From Echinostoma caproni (lineage: Eukaryota > Platyhelminthes > Trematoda > Plagiorchiida > Echinostomatidae), in assembly GCA_900618425.1 (NCBI GenBank), contig UZAN01045828.1, forward strand, positions 3,067-31,174: a stretch of DNA of 28,108 nt, in the 5' to 3' direction. Under the pieces are notes generated by a model. It was not told the DNA's origin. It did not search any database and saw only the letters and a list, made by a program, of their open reading frames with translations. Below, one piece after another: positions 605 through 28,108 of the stretch (positions are counted from its first letter, which is position 1; every line of letters begins with the position of its first letter). The position numbers and the translations under genes were made by a program.

Positions 605-712
605 TCGAGTTTCGCTGTCATCCGTTGTATACATTCACCGGTCAAGCCAGGATTCGAATCACGGACTCCACCCTCGGATGGTATGTGTGTTATCCACTTT
701 GCCAACCAATTC
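605..712 (-). repeat. tRNA-headed SINE relic with decayed hammerhead core
   Basis: Read on the minus strand, an A-box-like TGGCAAAGTGG (694-704) is followed at normal tRNA spacing by a B-box-like GATTCGAATCC (650-660). Together they form an internal RNA polymerase III promoter of tRNA type. Just downstream on the minus strand, CGGATGA (618-624) and CGAAAC (608-613) sit where the SINE copies at 24.4 and 27.9 kb have CUGAUGA and CGAAAC, but almost all of stem II is missing. I infer a decayed member of the same SINE family. The tRNA-like head is seen directly; the hammerhead relic is weaker. Confidence 0.5.
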
Positions 713-12477: not shown

Positions 12478-12783
12478 CTACGGGTCAGCGAGTTGTAGCG
12501 CAAATGTATGTTCGAGTAGGCGAGTGCATAGCTGGTTGCTTATCTCTCCTACGTAACGCTGCTCACAGTCTAGGCACGGAATTGCGTGCACAGCGCCCGG
12601 TTGGTCGTATGGTTCTACGTGGTCCTTGCCGTTGAACAAAATTAACCGCAACATCATAGGTTTGTGGGCAATGGTAACACCCAGAGGGCGAAGGATGCGA
12701 TCGACGGTTTCTGATACCTCATGTATGTATGGTAATAAGAGTTTCATTGTCCTCTCTTCATCTTTCTGGAAGACGAGGATCAT
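12478..12783 (-). pseudogene. GIY-YIG endonuclease part of the Penelope-like element
   Basis: The frame contains LLLPYIHEVSETVDRILRPLG, close to the linker that precedes the nuclease in these elements, then AVHAIPCLDCEQRYVGE and a downstream CTRLLEH. In the family the nuclease reads roughly G.VY.IPC..C...Y.GET...L..R..EH: the CxxC, the second Y.GE and the R..EH are kept, while the first Tyr (VY) is now His and the T after GE is Ile. The enzyme nicks target DNA for retrotransposition. Loss of the first conserved Tyr and later frameshifts make this copy inactive. It overlaps the end of the RT frame by 26 bases in another frame. Confidence 0.78.
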
Positions 12784-13108
12784 CTTTTATCAGATTATGT
12801 ATGCTCTTCGGAGTTAGTTGTATCGATGTGTTCGTGAACAGAGATGTGACGTCGAGGGACACCATGTTTCCTTTTGGATTCAGCTTTAATTCTCTTGCAT
12901 GGTCTCGGAATGTGAACGGGTTTTTTATGCCGTTATCTTCTAGAATAGATGGGCGTAATAAATGGAAGAGATAATTAGCCAGCTGATATTTGAGAGCCGT
13001 TCTCAAAGGAACGATCGGACGTAGTGGTACGCCGCTTTTGCGCCCCTTTGGTAGTTCGTAGATTCGCGGGATGGGAACCCCGTTTGATATCTTTGTATTG
13101 TTTTTCAC
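12758..13108 (-). pseudogene. Penelope-like RT, N-terminal half only
   Basis: The 116-codon frame reads IPRIYELPKGRKSGVPLRPI, then a Tyr-Leu-Ala helix, then MVSLDVTSLFTN, followed by a helix ending DDPRLPER. PRIYGLPK(IH)K.GVPLRPI and the motif A segment VS.DVT.LFT are hallmarks of Penelope-like RTs, and the motif A Asp is present. The RT should continue through motif B (MGSP) and the catalytic YVDD, but the sequence passes straight into the linker before the GIY-YIG nuclease. Given the usual family length, some 300 codons are missing (inference). The first Met is arbitrary; the coding region runs in from further upstream. Confidence 0.8.

Positions 13109-17393: not shown

Positions 17394-17442
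<49 letters not shown>
17394..17442. repeat. TG dinucleotide microsatellite at gap edge
   Basis: About 24 perfect TG units run directly into the assembly gap. The true length is unknown and the repeat is the likely reason the assembly broke here. The Thr-His or Cys-Val runs in translated frames are artefacts. Confidence 0.95.
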
Positions 17443-20323: not shown

Positions 20324-21180
20324 ATGGGATATAACTTACAAAGACTTCGCTTTTACAAATCCCATAGGGTTTGGTTCGGTATTCATCCCATAGTCCTCAA
20401 AATATGCGCTCCAAAACTGGATCTCCTCCTACGCCGCTTATTCTCTCTATCCCTCGATTCCGAGATATTCTCGACCTCGTGGAAAATATTAGATGTTTTC
20501 CATCCCCAAACGCGACGACCACTCAGACCCAAACAACTACTGCCCCATCTCTCTCTCATATCAGTCATTTCGAAGATTATGGAATCAATGGTTCCTGATC
20601 AACTCCGTTACCAAATGGAGCAGAACAAGACGCTTAGCGACCGCCAGTACGGTTTTTGATCCCACAGATCATTCGATGACCTTCTGGCGCTCATTTCGCA
20701 TACCTCGTCAGCGGCACTCGACAACCACGGAGAAACCCACATAGTGTCATTGAATATATCAAAAGTTTTCGACCGTGTCTGGAACGCGGGTCTGAGGGCT
20801 AAACTACCTAACTTTGGCTTTACTTGGGAACTTGTGTCCTGAATAGCAAGCTATCTCAAAGACCGCAGCATCTCCGTTCGAGTGGATGAGACCATGTCTC
20901 GTTCCGTGCCTGTGAATGCTGGTGTTCTCCAGGGTGCCGTACTTTTCCCTTCCCTTTTCCTGATGCTTACGATGACCTTCTTTTTTCAACTTCAAATCCT
21001 ATTCATGCTTTTGACGATGACACCACCCTGCGTCCTTCTTTGCCCTAATCCCAACCTTTGTTTAATTCTGTCTTCCGCACTCAGCCCTCCCCATATTCCC
21101 CTTCTTCCGACCTGCAATACTCCCTCAAGCAACTTGGATGTCGCCCACCTAAGGTTGTTGCCAAATAACACTGTAATGTG
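20324..21180 (+). pseudogene. Reverse transcriptase of the Jockey/CR1-like element
   Basis: Fragments in shifting frames give DHSDPNNYCPIS, then SVISKIMESMV and LSDRQYGF (near 20630-20660). They are followed by GETHIVSLNISKVFDRVWNA (about 20732-20790, motif A with FDRVW), AGVLQGAVLFPSLF (about 20918-20960, usually GVPQGSVLSP.LF) and IHAFDDDTTLRPSL (21001-21042), where the catalytic box is FDDD instead of FADD. Both catalytic Asp codons remain, but motif A SK.FD and motif B are altered and the frame is broken. Confidence 0.78.
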
Positions 21181-21216
21181 CCATAAAATGGATTGCAGAT
21201 TCTGAAGAATCGTCAA

Positions 21217-22049
21217 TCACTGAATCTGAGGGCCTCGAACGTGAGGACCCTGATGCAGGTAGGTCAACAAGCTTGTCTGGCTCGTACAATGGAATCCTTG
21301 GGATCGATATTTGCTGCGTGTCGGAAACTCGGATCCAGGATCCTATTACTGTAAGCCACCTGAGTGTGCCAGATTTGTCCTCGAGATACGTTCTTAGCAC
21401 ATCAGGTGACGATGATGCTCGTTCAGTACGTCAACGCGGGGTAGGTATAGTACTCAGCAACAGGGCGGGGTCTTCTCCTGTTGACTGGATCCCCGTCAAC
21501 AGTCATTTATGTGCAGTTCGTCAATCAATCAGCGTCCGGAAGGAAAGCAACATCAAAAGGTGTTTGTTCGTCATATCGGCATATGCACCGACTAATTGCG
21601 GTTTTGACACACAAAAGGACGCTTTCTACGATGAATTCACCGATCTCATGCGGCTGAGTCGAAGTTCCGACATAGTTGTACTTGTAGGTGACTTCAACGC
21701 GCAAGTTGGAAAAATGAGCGCATCGGCAGCTTGCTTAGGCGGTAGTTGTGCTCTGCCCTGCCAACGAACAGATAAAGACGATCGACTTCTTCAGCTCTGT
21801 GCAAACCATCATCTGTTCCTATCAAGCACCAACTTTCAACACAGACTTCGACGAACGGTACCGTGGCGCTCCAGTTCAACTGGTACGCTAACTCAAATCG
21901 ACCACATAGCAGTAAGCTACCGTTGGCGTGGCTCCCTACAAAATTGCAGGTCCTATTGGACCACCCACGTTGAGTCTGACCACGCATTAGTTTTGATGCC
22001 GTTCACTCTGCAACTGACTGATCGTCAACAAATTAGCAAACTCGGATAG
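21217..22049 (+). pseudogene. RTE-like APE endonuclease domain, nearly intact
   Basis: The first part, SLNLRASNVRTLMQVGQQAC then LARTMESLG (21217-21297), lies one frame away from the rest. A single-base loss near 21300 shifts into the long frame IDICCVSETRIQDP and onward to the stop at 22047. Key residues are visible: SETR (Glu codon 21324-21326), a SAYAPTN strand, GDFNAQVG (21687-21710), QIDHIAVSYRW, and ESDHAL with SDH at 21975-21983 carrying the catalytic His. These are the metal-binding and catalytic motifs of APE nucleases, which nick genomic DNA for priming. Only the frameshift and a stop before the linker break it. Confidence 0.85.
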
Positions 22050-22250
22050 CTCATCATCGATTTTCTGTTCCTATAGTTCGTGCACTCTGAGTCAGAGCTA
22101 GTACGTGAGCTAAACGCGCTTCAAAGTGATGTGTTAGATGAGCAGTGAGATCAGATTAGACGAGCAATGTATTCCGCTGAGAATGTTGTTTGCGGGACTG
22201 AGCCTCATATCCGTCGAAGGCATTAGATATCTGGTGAGTGTGTAGCACTG

Positions 22251-22568
22251 ATGAATCGAAAACGACAAATCCCGAGCTGCCAGGATCAAAACAGTGTTAG
22301 GTGGCGCCTGAAGCGTCGGCTGACGAAGAGCCTTAACAGGGACCGTGAGAACTGGCGGGCAACAATAGCTAGTGAGATGGAAGTAGCAGCTGCATCAGGG
22401 AGTAGTCAAAGAGTGTTCGGACTGATATACAACACGGGAGGTTGGCGAACTTCAGTTAGTGAAACAGTTTGCTACAAGAGAGGGAAAGCTATTCACAATA
22501 GGGATGAACGACTTGATCGCTGGACAGAATACTCCAGCGAACAGTTTAACTGGCCTGCCGCTAACTAG
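22251..22568 (+). pseudogene. RTE-like linker between EN and RT
   Basis: The 105-codon frame holds RRLTKSLNRDRENWRATIAS, then EMEVAAASGSSQRVFGLIYN and, near the end, RLDRWTEYSSEQFNWP. This is the arginine-rich helical linker found between endonuclease and RT in RTE-type elements (pattern LT..L..DR..WW...A.EME.A...G). Between 22050 and 22250 the frame is closed by several stops, and a stop at 22566 separates it from the next piece. Confidence 0.75.
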
Positions 22569-22659
22569 GTTGGCTCATCCGCAACGGAAGCTCCGTGAGC
22601 AGTCTCGTGTGATTCTCCAACAAAAACAGAAGTTCAGTCCTGCATTCAAGCTCCAAAGT

Positions 22660-23485
22660 GGAGAAAGACAGTAGGACCAGATGAGCTTCCTCCCACTCTC
22701 TTCAAGATGTGGAGTAATAACCTCGTAAGGTCTATTACCACCCTCGACAAGATTGCGAAAAACACCGTGGGATAAGTTTGATTCCGATCGTCAACAAAGT
22801 GCTATCCTCGGTCATACTTCGAAGTCTGACTCCTTTAAGAGAGATCAACATCCGTGAACAGCAAGCCGGATTCCGGCCTGGTCGTGAATGTATTGATAAA
22901 ATGTGTATGTTGCATCAGGTACTCGAGCTGCGTCACACCCACCACCGGCCAACGATCGCAGTGTTCCCTGACCCGAAAGGAGCTTTCGACTCAGTTGACC
23001 GCAAAGCTTTGATGGGCTCCCTTCTTCGAAAAAGAATGCCCCAGAGGTACATTTACCTACTGAGGTCACTGTACTCACATACCTCCGGTCGTGTAAGGGT
23101 TTACAACAAGCTAAGTAGGCCGTTCGTCACCAGCAGCGTCATCCGTCAAGGATGCCCTCTTTCGCCTTTTCTGTTCAGTTTCGTCGTAGACGAAATACGG
23201 GAGAACGCACTAAGTGGACCCCAAAACGTAGATATTGAATGGGCAGCTGGAGAAAAGCTGTGCGATTTAGAGTACGCCGATGACATCGTCTATCTGTTCG
23301 AATGTATCGAAGACGCGCAAAGCACACTTAATAGACTAACAAGTGCAGTAGCCACATTGGGTATATGCTTCGCACCTTCAAAGTGCCAAGTGGTGCTGCA
23401 GGAATGGGTTTCGTCTACTCCCGCTCCGAAACTAAATGGTTGGTTGGAGACATTGAAGGATATGGCAGCGAACCGACAGCAGTGA
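22660..23485 (+). pseudogene. RTE-like reverse transcriptase domain
   Basis: An initial piece, RKTVGPDELPPTLFKMW (about 22661), is followed by two stops and a frameshift. The main frame (from 22778) then reads IPIVNKVLSSVILRSL, EQQAGFRPGRECIDKM, FPDPKGAFDSVDRKAL (motif A), VIRQGCPLSPFLFSFVVDEI (motif B), LEYADDIVYL (catalytic YADD, 23273-23284) and a following thumb-like helix ending PSKCQVVLQEW. All RT core motifs are present. FPDPKGAF departs from the usual FLDFKAAF, but the Asp is kept. The frame stops at 23483, where the usual C-terminal tail is lost. Confidence 0.85.
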
Positions 23486-23702
23486 TGTTCTTGTTGTCAT
23501 TTCTTATCAGGTTAGAATGCCTGAAGCGGTATGTATGCAGAGTTCGATTGCGTACTCTGTGTGTTGATCATAGAGGTTCACCTTCTTCCCCCTCCTTCAA
23601 AATAGGCCCATCCCTGTCCACCTTAAATTGTACCACTAACATTGTACGCTTTGCGAGTTTGGCAGCGATCGGTGAAGTTCACCTCACTATATTTCGCTAT
23701 AA

Positions 23703-23715
23703 GATGATGATGATG
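23703..23715. repeat. Short GAT tandem tract
   Basis: Four GAT units between the RTE-like remnant and the next RT fragment. RTE-type elements often end in short tandem repeats, so this could be the old 3' tail. The link is inferred. Confidence 0.45.
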
Positions 23716-24270
23716 TCCCGAATAATTACCGTCCTGTTCCTTTCACATCTGTTCTATTTGAAACCCTTTGCTCCAATCATCTGCTTTTGCCCGTTGAATT
23801 TTAAGGACTCCTGACCGATCGCCAATACGGCTTCCAAGCACTGACCTGATGTCTCTCTTCTAATAATTATGGTGAGCTGCATTTGATACACGGAGAAACG
23901 CACCTGGCCTCGCTCGGCGTTTCAAATGCCTTCGACCGAGTTTGGCGCAAAACTGCCTACGTTCCATTTACCTGCGGCTATCGTATATTGTTTTTAAAGT
24001 TTGCTCTGTAAGCGAACCATCTTTCGAGTCGATGTGGTTCTATTTCAGCCGTTCCCTGTATGTACCGGCGTCCTCCAAGGTCCACTACTTGCGCGCACCA
24101 TCCTCTATTTATCACTAACTTTCCTTGCAAGACTTTCAATCTAATCCAATCGTTTTTGGATGACGCCATTTCATTGCTTCATGAATGTAGTGCGGTCAGC
24201 ATGTCACTGGACTCCTAGCATGACCACATCTCGCATTACATTCAATGCAAACCATGGAACTTTTTTCTTT
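23715..24270 (+). pseudogene. Second Jockey/CR1-like RT fragment
   Basis: Read in shifting frames, the segment gives NNYRPVPFTSVLFETL (about 23721), LLTDRQYGFQALT (about 23808), HGETHLASLGVSNAFDRVWR (about 23890-23950), CTGVLQGPLLA (about 24062-24095, usually GVPQGSVL) and QSFLDDAISLLHE with the catalytic box FLDD (24153-24164). The order matches the RT of the 20.3-21.2 kb copy, so this is another copy and not its continuation. Several stops and shifts show it is inactive. It ends where the hammerhead SINE begins. Confidence 0.72.
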
Positions 24271-24288
24271 TTATAAAGATTATATTTT

Positions 24289-24455
24289 CAAGTGCGTAAT
24301 GGAGGATTTGATTCGGTTTCAAATGGGAATTCGTCGTATATATGGCAAATGAAGCGTGAACTGAAGCACTGGACAACTGTTTCGACCTGTTTAGGTCTCA
24401 TCAGCAGTGCGAATCCATCGACCTAACTGGGGATCGAACCCAGGACCTCACTGGA
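24289..24455 (-). repeat. tRNA-like SINE with hammerhead ribozyme, copy 1
   Basis: On the minus strand a canonical B box GGTTCGATCCC (24430-24440) is followed by a hammerhead ribozyme and then a body that matches the copy at 27798-27995 almost base for base (CTTCATTTGCCATATA, GACGAATTCCCATTTGAAA, AATCAAATCCTCCA). The 3' end is around 24289, followed by A/T-rich sequence. The A box side is missing: upstream of the B box the sequence becomes a retrotransposon endonuclease fragment. A pol III type promoter plus a hammerhead is the known organisation of the schistosome Sm-alpha SINE-like family. Family identity is inferred. Confidence 0.82.
24366..24410 (-). ncRNA. Hammerhead ribozyme, type I, complete core
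   Basis: Minus-strand parts in order: stem I 5' GCACUG, core CUGAUGA, stem II GACCU-AAAC-AGGUC (five perfect pairs), core GAAA, a minimal stem III CAGUUG (two pairs, two-base loop), cleavage triplet GUC, and stem I 3' CAGUGC, which is fully complementary to the 5' strand. All conserved core bases of the type I hammerhead are present. The predicted self-cleavage is between plus positions 24372 and 24371. A very short stem III is typical of hammerheads from mobile elements and often lowers monomer activity. Core and pairing are seen; activity is inferred. Confidence 0.9.
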
Positions 24456-24640
24456 AGAAGCGATAGAATAATGGATATAGGTGCAGAAACCAGCTTTAGG
24501 AAGAAAAGAAAAACTAAGGAAGTATTTAGGGATTTGAAGGAGAGATTCGCGTATCGATCAGAAAGCCAAGGGAAGAGGATTGGAGAAAATGATGTACAGA
24601 ATTATTATTAGGGTTTGAACTACGAATGTTAGTGAGGACA
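24456..24640 (-). pseudogene. Jockey/CR1-like endonuclease N-terminal fragment
   Basis: Minus-strand sequence starting CTCACTAACATTCGT matches the plus-strand start of the element at 19.7 kb. It encodes LTNIRSSNPNNNSVHHFLQ and, further on, FLPKAGFCTYI, corresponding to FIPKAGVCAFI there. The SETQ segment has been lost. The fragment stops exactly where the SINE copy 1 homology begins, which suggests the SINE (or a rearrangement with it) truncated it. Confidence 0.7.
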
Positions 24641-24721
24641 ATAGAGCGTTGTAAGTTTTTAGGTGGAGTGCGCGTTCTATGATTCATGTGAGTTGTATTT
24701 TTCATTTGAGGTGTGAGAGAA

Positions 24722-24870
24722 GACCGGCAACCCAATTCTGGGACTTGGAGTGGTAAATCACATAAGGTACCAATAGGTGGAGCATGGTAGTGAACCGGCG
24801 ACAGCAGGGTTGCCCACCACCTGGAGAAGTAGATGACATTTAAACCGGATATCTCAGTCGCCCAGTGAGT
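24722..24870. repeat. Dispersed repeat, copy B
   Basis: Diverged second copy of the 16606-16735 repeat, in the same orientation. On the minus strand, near 24845-24870, there is a weak tRNA-like pair (GGGCGACTGAG and GGTTTAAATGTC), so a SINE origin is possible. Confidence 0.5.
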
Positions 24871-25467
24871 TGGTTGATTTAAAAGTCCCATTACTTACGG
24901 TACTCAACCGTGATAGTAAAATTGCTCTGGTACCCTAAAACAGTGCTCTGTGTTAGTCATATAATGTCGGTGGTTTTCATCCTATGCCGAGTGCCCCCAC
25001 AACCTGTTCATTCCATATACTCACTTAGTTTGTATACTTTGAGAACTTTACAGTGTGATAAGCAATGAAAGAGAAAGGCCTTATAATGGCTGCTCGGTTA
25101 TTAAAATTAGTGACTTTGAATGTCGAACCACAAATCGTCCTGATGGGGTCAGCTTGGGCCAGATGACGTCGATGCGGCTTTCCACCGCAATAGTCGTTTC
25201 TTTAAGCTACATGCACTTAATCAGTTTAGCTGGTATGCGTTAGCATTGAGTCGCTCAGTTTTTATCGTTTCTGATGGAGTAAATATCTTCTTTCTATTTC
25301 ACATGGAAGGATTCTATTTGGTATTTTCTGCAAATGAACCCATTTTTTAGTTGACTTGATTCTTCCCAAAGTATCCACAAAATCTCCATGCTGTTTTTCA
25401 GTTCATTTATCTTTCTATTGTTTGTAGTAGCCATTGAACACTTCCATCATTCGAATAGCGGAACAAA
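24871..25467 (+). promoter_or_regulatory. Upstream region of PDCD10 with possible 3' splice sites
   Basis: No coding region is recognised here. Pyrimidine-rich 3' splice-site-like sequences end at 25401 (CTGTTTTTCAG) and 25427 (TTTGTAG), some 40-70 bases before the PDCD10 start codon. They could be the end of a 5' UTR intron or a spliced-leader acceptor, both of which occur in flukes. No TATA-like element is convincing. Confidence 0.3.
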
Positions 25468-26404
25468 ATGGCAGCAGCGAGGTGGTCCAACACAAATGCA
25501 CCTCAAGGCCCACTTATGAGCAGTGCTAATGCAACACGTCAAATCATTTTTGAACCAACTTTCGTCAAGGTACATCATCTTTGCATACAATTAAAGTCCA
25601 TATTCGTTCCAGATGGAAGAGGTAGATTACGCATCAACTCAGAAGCTCAAAGAAGCGTTTTACAAAGTTTGTTACACATGTACTTAGCGTATATCCGATT
25701 GTTTGTGCAGGTGGAGAAACGTTATCCAGGCTTCAGCCAGGAATTTATCATTGGTTTACTTCAGCGGTTGGGATTGGAGAAAGAGGTGGATTTGTTTGAA
25801 ACCGGCCTTCGAATTGCTGGTTTTCAAGAAGGAGGTAGCAATAAAATCAGCATTATGCAGCATATTTTTTTCATCCCTCAGCTCCCATTCATCGTACCGG
25901 ACATCGGCGCCAACAGTTAATGGAGTTAGAGCATCGGGCACAAGAGCTGAAGAAGATTTTGAGCACAATACCGGATGAGATTTGTGATCGTCGATGTTTT
26001 ATTGAGTTGATTAAGTAGGTCCAAGTCCCAGTTGAATAATTGTTTTTCTTTTTTCAGACTTATTGCTAGTGCAATCAAACAGCTTCTGGATTCAGTCACA
26101 CACGTCTACGAATCTTCACCTTCCGGGGCTCACAAGAAGGCGCTCGGGGAGCAAAAGCAAAATTTTTTACTCTACTGCCGACAGTTTAGCTCGAATTTGA
26201 AAGACTACTTTAAAGACAACAAGTAGGTTCTGATGCTTATGCTATTGCCATTCATTGATTCATTATTTTTAAATAATCATTGCTATTTTAAACTAATTTA
26301 TCAATCTAGTGTTGTGTTTAAATTAGCTCAGGACGAAACAGTTGTCCAGTGCTCTCTGTCGGTCATCACACATTTCCATCACAACCATTTCAATTGCAAT
26401 GTGA
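25468..26404 (+). CDS. PDCD10: PDCD10/CCM3 homologue, six exons
   Basis: Programmed cell death protein 10 is a small adaptor. In animals its N-terminal dimerisation domain binds GCKIII kinases and its C-terminal focal-adhesion-targeting-like four-helix domain binds CCM2, striatin (STRIPAK) and paxillin. My exons are 25468-25569, 25613-25666, 25711-25834, 25882-26014, 26058-26222 and 26332-26404, all with GT/AG introns. Joined, they give 216 residues (vertebrates about 212). Exon 2 reads MEEVDYASTQKLKEAFYK and runs into VEKRYPGFSQE, matching the [20 protein letters not shown] region of the human protein. Exon 4 has LKKILSTIPDEICDR (117-130) and exon 5 LIASAIKQLLD (139-149) and LKDYFKDN, all diagnostic. 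Exon 1 starts at the only suitable Met. The last exon is the least certain: alternative acceptors at 26309 and 26326 give longer or unrelated tails, but the 26331 acceptor keeps the Lys codon and the family length. Confidence 0.9.
25570..25612 (+). other. PDCD10 intron 1 (43 nt)
   Basis: Donor AAG|GTACAT and acceptor TTCCAG, phase 0. Removal brings exon 2 into the frame that matches PDCD10. The retained sequence stays open, so unspliced translation gives a misleading insertion. Confidence 0.85.
25667..25710 (+). other. PDCD10 intron 2 (44 nt)
   Basis: Donor AAA|GTTTGT and acceptor TTTGTGCAG, phase 0. Together with intron 1 it totals 87 nt, so retaining both restores the frame by chance. Confidence 0.85.
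25835..25881 (+). other. PDCD10 intron 3 (47 nt)
   Basis: Donor GAG|GTAGCA and acceptor TTTTTTTCATCCCTCAG, phase 1. Retention leads to a stop at 25918. Confidence 0.85.
26015..26057 (+). other. PDCD10 intron 4 (43 nt)
   Basis: Donor AA|GTAGGT and acceptor CTTTTTTCAG, phase 2. The split codon is Lys138. Confidence 0.88.
26223..26331 (+). other. PDCD10 intron 5 (about 109 nt)
   Basis: Donor AA|GTAGGT is identical to that of intron 4, phase 2. The acceptor choice (26331, CTCAG) is inferred from protein length and the conserved Lys; 26309 and 26326 are alternatives. Confidence 0.6.
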
Positions 26405-26443
26405 AATCCTGTCTGTTGTCGTCGGAAGACTGTCACAGTTATG

Positions 26444-26449
26444 AATAAA
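26444..26449 (+). terminator. Polyadenylation signal of PDCD10
   Basis: Canonical AATAAA 40 bases after the proposed stop codon. Cleavage would be expected roughly at 26460-26475, giving a very short 3' UTR, as is common in compact fluke genes. Confidence 0.75.
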
Positions 26450-26469
26450 CAAATTACACATGAAAATGT

Positions 26470-26660
26470 TCAGGTCGTTTAAGTCACCGTCATCGACGTA
26501 CTTTGGTCCCTAAGGTCCGAGGTTCGAACCCCTTCCCCAACCTCCAGCATAAGTAGTGAGCCTCATGTTCATGCGGAGTAGCACTCATTCAGTAGCTCGT
26601 GACTGATGAAAGAACTACGAGGAGGGCAGCTGTCGAGCTTCTGTTTTTGTATTCGTTTTC
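26470..26660 (+). repeat. Possible SINE-like repeat with B box
   Basis: GGTTCGAACCC (26521-26531) is a perfect pol III B box, followed by a repeat-like body. A convincing A box was not found upstream. It begins right after the PDCD10 polyadenylation signal. A CTGATGA at about 26605 lacks a following stem II and GAAA, so no hammerhead is called. Confidence 0.4.
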
Positions 26661-27428
26661 GATTTGTTGTTTTTGTCTTTCTGCTTCCCTTCGGGAGCCA
26701 AAAATAGGTTTGCGAGATTTAACTGTTGCTATGCACTAGTGCATCAAATCGTCCCACCAGTTTGTACCTGTAGCTTGCTTGTACAAAGTTAAAACCGATT
26801 GATTCACTCAGTTCATACACATTCGGAAACGTTTGTTTTTCCGATGAGAGGGAACTGAATACGAATGTTCGCCTACTTCGTCGCGCATGTCGGTTTGGAT
26901 CTGTTAAGTTTTATACTGTGCTAGTAAATTTCAATCCACCTGGCAAGGATGGTACCGAACCAAAAATCTATTCTCCTGCTGTTCCATTGGTCAATGTTCC
27001 CAATTGGTTCCAATAGTCTCGATTACCAATCGCGTGTAGTATTGGTAATAGACGGATTTTACTCAGTCCCATATCCAAACCAAGCGCATGCTCAGCAAGA
27101 TTGTAGGGTTAGCCATAGATGTAAGATTTTATCCTGATGTATTCCGGAAGTATTTTTTATTATACGAAAGTGGATAGAGTAAAAGGGGTAAACCCCATGA
27201 TCCAAGGATATGCTGTACGTGGGAAGGTAAGGGGAACATTCAAGCCAAAACCATCTTGTGGATTCTGAGTTTAAAGGTAAGGAAGTTGTACGTTGAAGGG
27301 AAGACCGAAATGGACTAAGTGTTCAACAGCTGTTCTGTTCTTGGGAAAAATGATGATTGAAAGTTAGAAATGCGACACCTGGGGATAGTCACTTGAAATG
27401 AGTGGCTAGCCGCTTGTGCGCGGGGTCT
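26661..27428. other. Stretch with one unassigned open frame
   Basis: About 80 plus-strand codons without Met lie open at roughly 26775-27017, including VNFNPPGKDGTEPKIYSPAV. The composition looks protein-like but I cannot assign a family; an LTR or LINE remnant is possible. The rest holds nothing recognised. Confidence 0.25.
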
Positions 27429-27797
27429 TCAAGAAAGAGCAAGCGGGAGACGAATAGAAGCGGAAAGTTCACTAGAGTAAAATCCAAAGTAGTTTTGATG
27501 GAATAAGGATAAAAAAGCGACTATCCGACGGTGAGCTAGTGACTGAAAATTACGTGTTAGGGATGGGTCTTTGATGATACGAATAGCCTTACGTTGAACT
27601 CGATGAAGAAGAGAAAGAGGTGGATCAAGCTCCACCCCACACATGACTGCAGTATTCAAGTGTAGGGCGAATCTGAGCTTTGTAAAGCGACAAGGGGTGA
27701 TTTGGGNTGCGCAGGAGACAAGTAGATAAATATATAGTGACCATAAATGAGAAAAATATAAGGTAAGGATTGCATGGATTTGTAAAACGGAGAATTT
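27429..27797 (-). pseudogene. Jockey/CR1-like RT C-terminal fragment
   Basis: Read on the minus strand, LSLYKAQIRPTLEYCSHVWGG (one frame) is followed after a one-base shift by PPLSLLHRVQRKAIRIIKDP, then LTRNFQSLAHRRIVAFLSLF. LYKAQIRP.LEYCSHVWGGA and L..VQ.KAIRLI..P..T..L.SL.HRR.VA.L..FYR are the conserved post-RT region of Jockey/CR1-type LINEs. One unknown base (27707) lies just before it. The upstream part is cut off by the SINE copy 2. The element's EN fragment at 24.5 kb cannot belong to this copy because the order on the minus strand is reversed. Confidence 0.82.
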
Positions 27798-27995
27798 CAT
27801 GTGAGTATTGGAGGATTTGATTAGATTTCAAATGGGAATTCGTCGTGTATATGGCAAATGAAGCGCGAACTGAAAAGCTAGGAAGCACTGGACAACTGTT
27901 TCGACATGTTCAGGTCTCATCAGCAATGCGAATCCATCGAACCAATTACCTCATGGGCAGAACGTAAACACACTACCCACTCGGCCACCGGACAG
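27798..27995 (-). repeat. tRNA-like SINE with hammerhead ribozyme, copy 2
   Basis: On the minus strand an A box TGGCCGAGTGG (27977-27987) and a B-box-like GGTTCGATGGATTC (27930-27943) precede the hammerhead, followed by the body shared with copy 1. Relative to copy 1 it lacks 16 bases between the two GGT(T)CGAT repeats, which fuses the B box to the sequence before stem I. It also has about ten extra bases after the ribozyme. It ends near 27798, next to an RT fragment on the same strand. Confidence 0.85.
27885..27929 (-). ncRNA. Hammerhead ribozyme, type I, copy 2
   Basis: Same layout and length as copy 1: stem I GCAUUG with CAGUGC (one G-U pair), CUGAUGA, stem II GACCU-GAAC-AUGUC (one C-U mismatch), GAAA, stem III CAGUUG, and GUC. 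The core bases are intact. The stem II mismatch may weaken it. Predicted cleavage is between plus positions 27891 and 27890. Confidence 0.85.
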
Positions 27996-28108
27996 CTGAT
28001 CAGGCCGTTTTTCATTTTCCATTTACACGCTATAGCATAACCCATCTTTCCATCACGACGAGACTGCACCTTGACGCGGTGTGATGGCTTGCGTGCCTCC
28101 ATGACCCT
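27996..28108. other. Window end, nothing firm
   Basis: The minus-strand sequence upstream of SINE copy 2 looks repeat-like (a short frame at 27920-28102 runs through both), but no family is assigned. Confidence 0.3.

What the first reader, a model, noticed from the sequence alone, without database searches (positions are those of the whole stretch)
24366..24410. Complete hammerhead ribozyme inside a tRNA-like SINE
Every conserved type I core base is present, with a perfect stem I (GCACUG/CAGUGC) and a perfect five-pair stem II. It sits directly after a pol III B box. Hammerheads in SINE-like repeats are established for schistosome Sm-alpha, so the class is known, but this copy predicts a catalytic RNA that ORF-based annotation would miss.
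Basis: partly seen in the sequence, partly recalled or inferred. Interest (0 to 1): 0.75.

Follow-up and report, generated by a model that had tools for sequence, protein, structure and literature searches.

The report
Hammerhead ribozyme in a fluke SINE
A short tRNA-like repeat in what looks like a fluke genome carries an intact-looking self-cutting RNA motif, much like the well-known schistosome Sm-alpha elements, so it is a new member of a known kind and not a surprise.

Summary
Rfam's type I hammerhead model matches 24366-24410 (minus) over its full length: 49.4 bits, cut-off 34, E 3.8e-10. Against the model consensus, 7 of 14 pairs changed on both sides and still pair; none broke. The host repeat is real: a second copy, 27940-27795, is 86.3% identical over 146 columns, 10 of them gaps, with a hammerhead just under the cut-off (33.9 bits). 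A 25-nt hammerhead fragment lies at 26329-26353, plus strand. The tRNA-like head is pieced together: copy 1 has a B box in a T-arm-like string but no A box; copy 2 has an A box 44 nt before a B-box core. Protein neighbours point to a digenean fluke, perhaps near Echinostoma. It works like Sm-alpha/Sj-alpha or metazoan retrozymes. No tandem array or clear target-site duplication was found here. Genome-wide copies could not be counted: the genome search failed in 11 of 11 attempts. New member of a known kind; cleavage is predicted, not shown.

The parts
24366..24410 (-). Hammerhead ribozyme type I, copy 1; predicted cleavage between 24372 and 24371
   Evidence: RF00163, 49.4 bits, E 3.8e-10, full model; 7 of 14 pairs changed on both sides against the Rfam consensus, 0 broken
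24357..24417 (-). Extended stem I: outer helix UGGAUU/AGUUCA separated from the inner six pairs by a C/UUC internal loop, where a stem I-loop II contact could form
   Evidence: Predicted in the fold of 24352-24424 (where 19 of 200 shuffles fold as well and the core is misfolded) and kept when the core is forced single-stranded; the tertiary contact is inference
24427..24443 (-). tRNA T-arm-like string CTGGG-TTCGATC-CCCAG containing the B box (24440-24430)
   Evidence: Only perfect match to the T-arm pattern in the window, but 37 of 200 random sequences had one, and the predicted fold of 24410-24450 does not form it
24286..24365 (-). 3' body (tail) of copy 1, shared with copy 2
   Evidence: blastn 86.3% over 146 columns, 24421-24286 against 27940-27795; the repeat finder D1, D2
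27885..27929 (-). Hammerhead type I, copy 2: core intact, one broken stem II pair (C-U), one G-U wobble in stem I
   Evidence: 33.9 bits against gathering 34, E 1.2e-5 for 6109 bases; pair count
27976..27987 (-). A box TGGCCGAGTGGG of copy 2
   Evidence: Only match in the window to a strict A-box pattern; 44 nt before a B-box core; such a pair in 0 of 200 random sequences (pattern chosen after seeing the site). A looser A-box consensus is also matched perfectly elsewhere in the window
27937..27943 (-). B-box core GGTTCGA of copy 2; the T-arm 3' side appears deleted (16 nt against copy 1)
   Evidence: the deletion is read by eye, MAFFT placed the gaps differently
27795..27884 (-). 3' body of copy 2, with a 10-nt insertion beside stem I relative to copy 1
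26329..26353 (+). Truncated hammerhead: 3' half (stem II 3' side, GAAA, helix III, cleavage site, stem I 3' side), 24 of 25 identical to copy 1, followed by a different sequence
   Evidence: the repeat finder I2, blastn E 2.4e-6, identity, sequence

Best explanation
This is a degraded copy of a SINE with a tRNA-like head that carries a type I hammerhead ribozyme downstream of its internal pol III promoter, in the manner of schistosome Sm-alpha/Sj-alpha, in a digenean fluke perhaps related to Echinostoma. A full-length copy would be transcribed by pol III from the A and B boxes (inferred). The hammerhead would cut its RNA after 24372 (inferred from the motif), possibly helped when two units in one transcript share helix III, because ACAGUUGU can pair with itself. 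The resulting RNA would be reverse-transcribed by a retroelement enzyme supplied in trans (inferred). This genomic copy lacks a recognisable A box and is probably no longer mobile.
For: Full-length Rfam hit with a large margin. 7 of 14 pairs changed on both sides and kept against the model consensus. Strict motif in 0 of 100 shuffles. Second copy sharing ribozyme and tail, and a head similar at 21 of 28 ungapped positions around the B box. Strict A box with a B-box core 44 nt on in copy 2, 0 of 200 random sequences. B box in copy 1. Schistosome precedent in print: SINE-like Sm-alpha with a hammerhead and tRNA-derived head, with A and B boxes (passages of PMC2770079, PMC2576457, PMC8490949, PMC4918200). 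Fluke host: the RT ORF's best hit by E-value is Schistosoma haematobium (53% over 91% of the query), next Dicrocoelium; an Echinostoma caproni protein has 75% over 56% (rank 6 of 90). The PDCD10-like ORF finds other flukes ahead of the one schistosomatid, Trichobilharzia (7 hits).
Against: No tRNA by ARAGORN and no tRNA match by Rfam at E up to 5 in 22000-28108. Copy 1 has no A box. blastn between the copies stops at 24421/27940, before both B boxes, and MAFFT leaves 13 of 36 head positions mismatched, so a shared head rests on a short stretch. No convincing target-site duplication. Only two copies and one fragment are known here. The isolated ribozyme is predicted to misfold by 5.2 kcal/mol; the double hammerhead is 5.0 kcal/mol above the dimer minimum. 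Divergence in the ribozyme (3 of 45) is not significantly lower than in the tail (14 of 96; p 0.27). On the dimer idea, published invertebrate retrozyme hammerheads mostly cleave well as monomers (abstract of PMC7229834, passage of PMC7761336).
Confidence: 0.8

Rival explanations
1. It is a metazoan non-LTR retrozyme: a 150-450 bp unit with a type I hammerhead that forms small circular RNAs and is reverse-transcribed into tandem copies, with the tRNA-like head incidental. This overlaps with the best explanation.
For: The abstract of PMC7229834 says most classical type I hammerheads of animals lie in such units, and a passage names platyhelminths among the hosts. The plant retrozyme paper draws a Schistosoma mansoni unit that carries a tRNA sequence (PMC4918200, legend passage). 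GC of the copies is 0.46 and 0.44, under 50% as described for such units.
Against: No tandem array in this window: Tandem Repeats Finder reported only a TG run, the two copies lie 3.5 kb apart and the fragment is in the opposite orientation. No circRNA evidence is available here.
Confidence: 0.3
2. The hammerhead comes from a Penelope-like element, whose pseudo-LTRs carry minimal type I hammerheads.
For: Decayed frames at 12478-13108 minus look to me, by recall, like a Penelope reverse transcriptase and a GIY-YIG-like end; the one homologue found for one frame, P0098, matches RVT_1 weakly, under its cut-off. PLE hammerheads are in print (PMC7761336, passages).
Against: Those frames are 11 kb away, and Pfam gave no match for either up to E 10. 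PLE motifs usually lack the non-conserved helix III nucleotides, whereas this one has them. tRNA-like boxes sit upstream in copy 2.
Confidence: 0.06
3. A chance match, or a dead relic with no present function.
For: Copy 2 has lost a stem II pair. Divergence is not significantly lower in the ribozyme than in the tail.
Against: E 3.8e-10, 0 of 100 shuffles, paired changes and repeated copies exclude chance in practice. A relic of a once active element remains possible.
Confidence: 0.03

Closest known systems
Sm-alpha / Sj-alpha SINE-like elements of Schistosoma (Ferbeyre 1998 and Laha 2000 are cited in papers whose passages I saw; I read neither)
   Same: tRNA-like head with A and B boxes, type I hammerhead, multicopy. 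Compared with the Rfam type I consensus (not with Sm-alpha itself): self-complementary helix III octamer (ACGCGCGU there, ACAGUUGU here) and a similar six-nucleotide loop II (CAAAUA there, UAAACA here)
   Different: Against the Rfam consensus, stems I-III differ at 7 of 14 pairs. The host may not be a schistosome. The tail was not compared with Sm-alpha because no Sm-alpha sequence was available here. The tRNA of origin is unresolved (Sm-alpha: tRNA-Gln-TTG in PMC2770079, tRNA-Glu in PMC4918200)
Metazoan non-LTR retrozymes (PMC7229834)
   Same: Small non-coding unit with a type I hammerhead, GC under 50%
   Different: Single dispersed copies rather than tandem repeats in this window; circular RNA not tested
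Hammerheads of Penelope-like elements and Terminons (PMC7761336 passages)
   Same: Type I topology, weak helix III
   Different: Here helix III nucleotides are present and the context is tRNA-like

Membership tests
Hammerhead ribozyme type I (RF00163) | Covariance model score above the gathering cut-off, full length | tested here: met
   49.4 bits against 34, positions 1-45 of 45; copy 2 just misses at 33.9
Hammerhead ribozyme type I (RF00163) | Self-cleavage at the predicted site | not testable with these tools
   Needs an in vitro assay
Sm-alpha-type SINE | Internal pol III A and B boxes upstream of the hammerhead | tested here: inconclusive
Copy 1: B box in a T-arm-like string, no A box. 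Copy 2: strict A box and B-box core 44 nt apart.
Sm-alpha-type SINE | Dispersed multicopy repeat | tested here: met
   Two copies, 86.3% over 146 columns, plus one fragment; genome-wide number unknown
Sm-alpha-type SINE | Target-site duplications | tested here: inconclusive
   None convincing among exact matches of 7 or more in about 110-130 nt of flank on each side; element ends are uncertain
Sm-alpha-type SINE | Sequence homology to Sm-alpha outside the ribozyme | not tested
   No Sm-alpha sequence was fetched; the 1998 paper is not held
Metazoan non-LTR retrozyme | Tandem repeats of 150-450 bp | tested here: not met
   In this window only: Tandem Repeats Finder found only a TG run; copies are 3.5 kb apart
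Metazoan non-LTR retrozyme | Circular RNA | not testable with these tools
   No RNA data
Penelope-like element | Hammerhead within or beside a Penelope reverse transcriptase | tested here: not met
   In this window only: the nearest candidate frames are 11 kb away and unconfirmed

The most novel reading that the evidence does not exclude
In flukes the hammerhead may be an exchangeable central module shared by several SINE families: the fragment at 26329-26353 keeps 24 of 25 ribozyme bases but runs into a different 3' sequence. If genome-wide copies showed the same ribozyme joined to different tRNA heads and different tails, the hammerhead would be a conserved central domain of a SINE superfamily across the Digenea, kept by selection.
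Probability: 0.15. Interest if true: 0.5.

Novelty: new member of a known kind. Interest (0 to 1): 0.22.

Why it matters
If the host is indeed outside the schistosomes, it extends the Sm-alpha type of ribozyme-bearing SINE to another fluke family. That would date the association to before the split of these lineages, or show that it arose more than once. It also adds an element that gene-based annotation would miss. None of this changes the known picture that type I hammerheads are common in animal repeats.

Tried and rejected
Genome-wide copy number and consensus: the genome search on the own genome was asked 11 times and never answered.

Viral origin: a pattern covering the ribozymes of copies 1 and 2 gave 0 matches in viral contigs. 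This says little about an animal repeat.

Penelope link: Pfam up to E 10 gave nothing for the two candidate frames. A search with one frame found one homologue, which matches RVT_1 at E 0.0028, under the cut-off. Left as a weak rival.

A bacterial-type promoter and terminator scan of 24200-24600 found nothing and is not relevant to pol III.

Target-site duplications: the only exact match of 7 or more for copy 1 (8 nt) has one side inside the tRNA-like head; copy 2 had none.

The T-arm is not persuasive alone: 37 of 200 random sequences held one, the 41-nt head region folds no better than shuffles (170 of 200 as good), and its predicted fold is not the T-arm. Fold controls for the ribozyme itself: copy 1 45-mer z -2.48 (3 of 200 shuffles as good), extended copy 1 z -1.43 (19 of 200), copy 2 z -0.25 (74 of 200).

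A helix III with a two-nucleotide loop was first tried in an energy evaluation and gave invalid values. It was replaced.

Literature searches for a hammerhead element in non-schistosome flukes: hammerhead ribozyme with SINE and trematode gave 6 papers (passages of 4 seen, the other 2 by listing). Hammerhead with Echinostoma gave 3 (passages of one seen, on Schistosoma mucin genes; the other two by listing, unrelated). Hammerhead ribozyme with Clonorchis gave 1, on Schistosoma, listing only. Hammerhead with Opisthorchis and ribozyme gave 0. A five-term search that included both Fasciola and Schistosoma gave 2, passages of both seen, both about Schistosoma; Fasciola without Schistosoma was not searched. 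A search with at least 4 of 5 flatworm SINE terms gave 6, all judged from the listing except PMC2770079. The held library omits most subscription papers, and Rfam's species lists were not seen, so I do not claim that it is unreported.

Full report
Observation. cmscan of the whole window against Rfam 15 gave one match at gathering level, RF00163 Hammerhead_1, at 24366-24410 on the minus strand, full length, 49.4 bits against a cut-off of 34, E 3.8e-10. The RNA reads GCACUG-CUGAUGA-GACCU-AAAC-AGGUC-GAAAC-AGUU-GUC-CAGUGC. A strict core-plus-stems motif, written after seeing the hit, occurs once in the window and in 0 of 100 dinucleotide shuffles. Against the Rfam consensus, 7 of 14 pairs differ on both sides and still pair, 7 are the same and 0 are broken; 14 of 17 unpaired positions are identical. 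That is what a conserved fold looks like, not a chance string.

Second and third occurrences. The repeat finder and blastn show a second, 27940-27795 minus, 86.3% identical over 146 alignment columns, 10 of which are one gap. It contains a hammerhead at 27885-27929 with 33.9 bits, just under the cut-off, E 1.2e-5 in a search of 6109 bases. Its core is intact, but one stem II pair is broken and 10 extra nucleotides sit beside stem I. A third piece at 26329-26353 on the plus strand holds only the 3' half of the ribozyme, 24 of 25 identical, followed by sequence that blastn at E 0.05 did not match to the other tails.

The tRNA-like head. ARAGORN found no tRNA in the window, and Rfam gave no tRNA match at E up to 5 in 22000-28108. 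The head is visible only in pieces. Copy 1 has the B box at 24440-24430 within a string CTGGG-TTCGATC-CCCAG (24443-24427) that could form a tRNA T-arm, with no A box (up to 1 mismatch) upstream of it. A perfect T-arm string is not rare, occurring in 37 of 200 random sequences, and the predicted fold of the 41-nt region does not form it. Copy 2 has a strict A box at 27987-27976 and a B-box core starting at 27943. The 44-nt spacing is that of a tRNA (recalled), and such a pair occurred in 0 of 200 random sequences, with a pattern chosen after seeing the site. blastn does not align the heads, but without gaps they agree at 21 of 28 positions around the B box before fading upstream. By eye, copy 2 has lost 16 nt after its B-box core relative to copy 1; MAFFT places the gaps differently, with 13 of 36 head positions mismatched. 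No convincing target-site duplication was found.

Structure and activity. With its flanks, copy 1 can extend stem I by an outer helix UGGAUU/AGUUCA beyond a C/UUC internal loop; this is predicted both in the minimum energy fold and with the core forced open. Such an internal loop is where natural type I ribozymes make contact with loop II (established knowledge; the contact here is inference). Helix III has only two or three pairs. The isolated 45-mer has a hammerhead energy of -10.4 kcal/mol against -15.6 for a competing fold. The octamer ACAGUUGU is self-complementary if G-U pairs are allowed, so two units could share an eight-pair helix III. That double hammerhead scores -29.0, better than two single hammerhead folds (-20.8) but worse than the dimer minimum of -34.0 and than two competing monomer folds (-31.2). 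Published invertebrate retrozyme hammerheads mostly cleave well as monomers, which speaks against a need for dimers. These energy models ignore tertiary contacts, so activity is an open question that needs an assay. Divergence between copies is 3 of 45 in the ribozyme and 14 of 96 in the tail (p 0.27), so there is no evidence of selection on the ribozyme.

Host. The reverse transcriptase ORF at 22721-23485 finds 90 proteins, with flukes at the top. The best by E-value is from Schistosoma haematobium (53% over 91% of the query), then Dicrocoelium; an Echinostoma caproni protein, rank 6, has 75% over 56%. A PDCD10-like ORF at 25459-25920 finds 7 proteins: 1 of unnamed source, then Dicrocoelium, Paragonimus (2), Opisthorchis (2) and, last by E-value, Trichobilharzia. 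A digenean is clear; that it is not a schistosome, and perhaps near Echinostoma, is an inference.

Known background. Schistosome Sm-alpha and Sj-alpha are SINE-like elements with a hammerhead: about 38,500 hammerhead matches by blastn in S. mansoni and about 5,000 in S. japonicum, with Sm-alpha-like elements resembling tRNA-Gln-TTG (PMC2770079, passages). Boxes A and B accompany the hammerheads found in S. mansoni mucin genes (PMC2576457, passages). Functional evidence for hammerheads in W-element families is reported in PMC8490949 (abstract and passages). Metazoan retrozymes with type I hammerheads, platyhelminths included, are described in PMC7229834 (abstract, section 13 and passages), and the plant retrozyme paper draws an S. 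mansoni unit with a tRNA part (PMC4918200, legend passage). PMC3088659 reports hammerheads across all domains (title and passages). I saw no paper on a fluke outside Schistosoma in the searches made, but the library is partial and most listed papers were seen only as listings or passages.

Verdict. The hammerhead is real and lies in a repeat of the Sm-alpha kind. It is a new member of a known kind, probably in a new host, in a damaged copy, with cleavage not shown. The most novel reading, a ribozyme module shared by SINE families with different tails, rests on one 25-nt fragment and could not be tested because the genome search did not complete.

Noticed in passing
window 650-704, minus strand: Another tRNA-like pair of boxes (TGGCAAAGTGG from 704 and GATTCGAATCC from 660, also 44 nt apart), with no Rfam hammerhead at gathering level, perhaps a different tRNA-derived SINE.
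   Followed up: partly
window 26521-26625, plus strand: A B-box-like GGTTCGAACCC about 170 nt downstream of the truncated hammerhead. About 70 nt further on, a CTGATGA lies between AGCTCG and CGAGCT and looks like a decayed hammerhead-like string (by eye); Rfam gave no match there up to E 5.
   Followed up: partly
window 12478-13108, minus strand: Broken frames of a retroelement that by recall look Penelope-like; Pfam gave no match.
   Followed up: partly
window 21177-23485, plus strand: Remains of non-LTR retrotransposon genes: endonuclease (PF14529) at 21177-22049 and reverse transcriptase (PF00078) at 22721-23485.
   Followed up: partly
window 25459-25920, plus strand: An exon-like frame resembling programmed cell death protein 10: Pfam E 0.0022, under the cut-off, and 54% identity to its best match.
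   Followed up: partly
window 27429-27909, minus strand: Frames that read to me like the 3' end of a LINE (by recall; no Pfam match for 27429-27827), into or beside which SINE copy 2 seems to have inserted.
   Followed up: no
window 17394-17442 and beyond: A TG run of 24.5 copies, followed by a long run of N (read as X in the frames; 538 N in the window).
   Followed up: no
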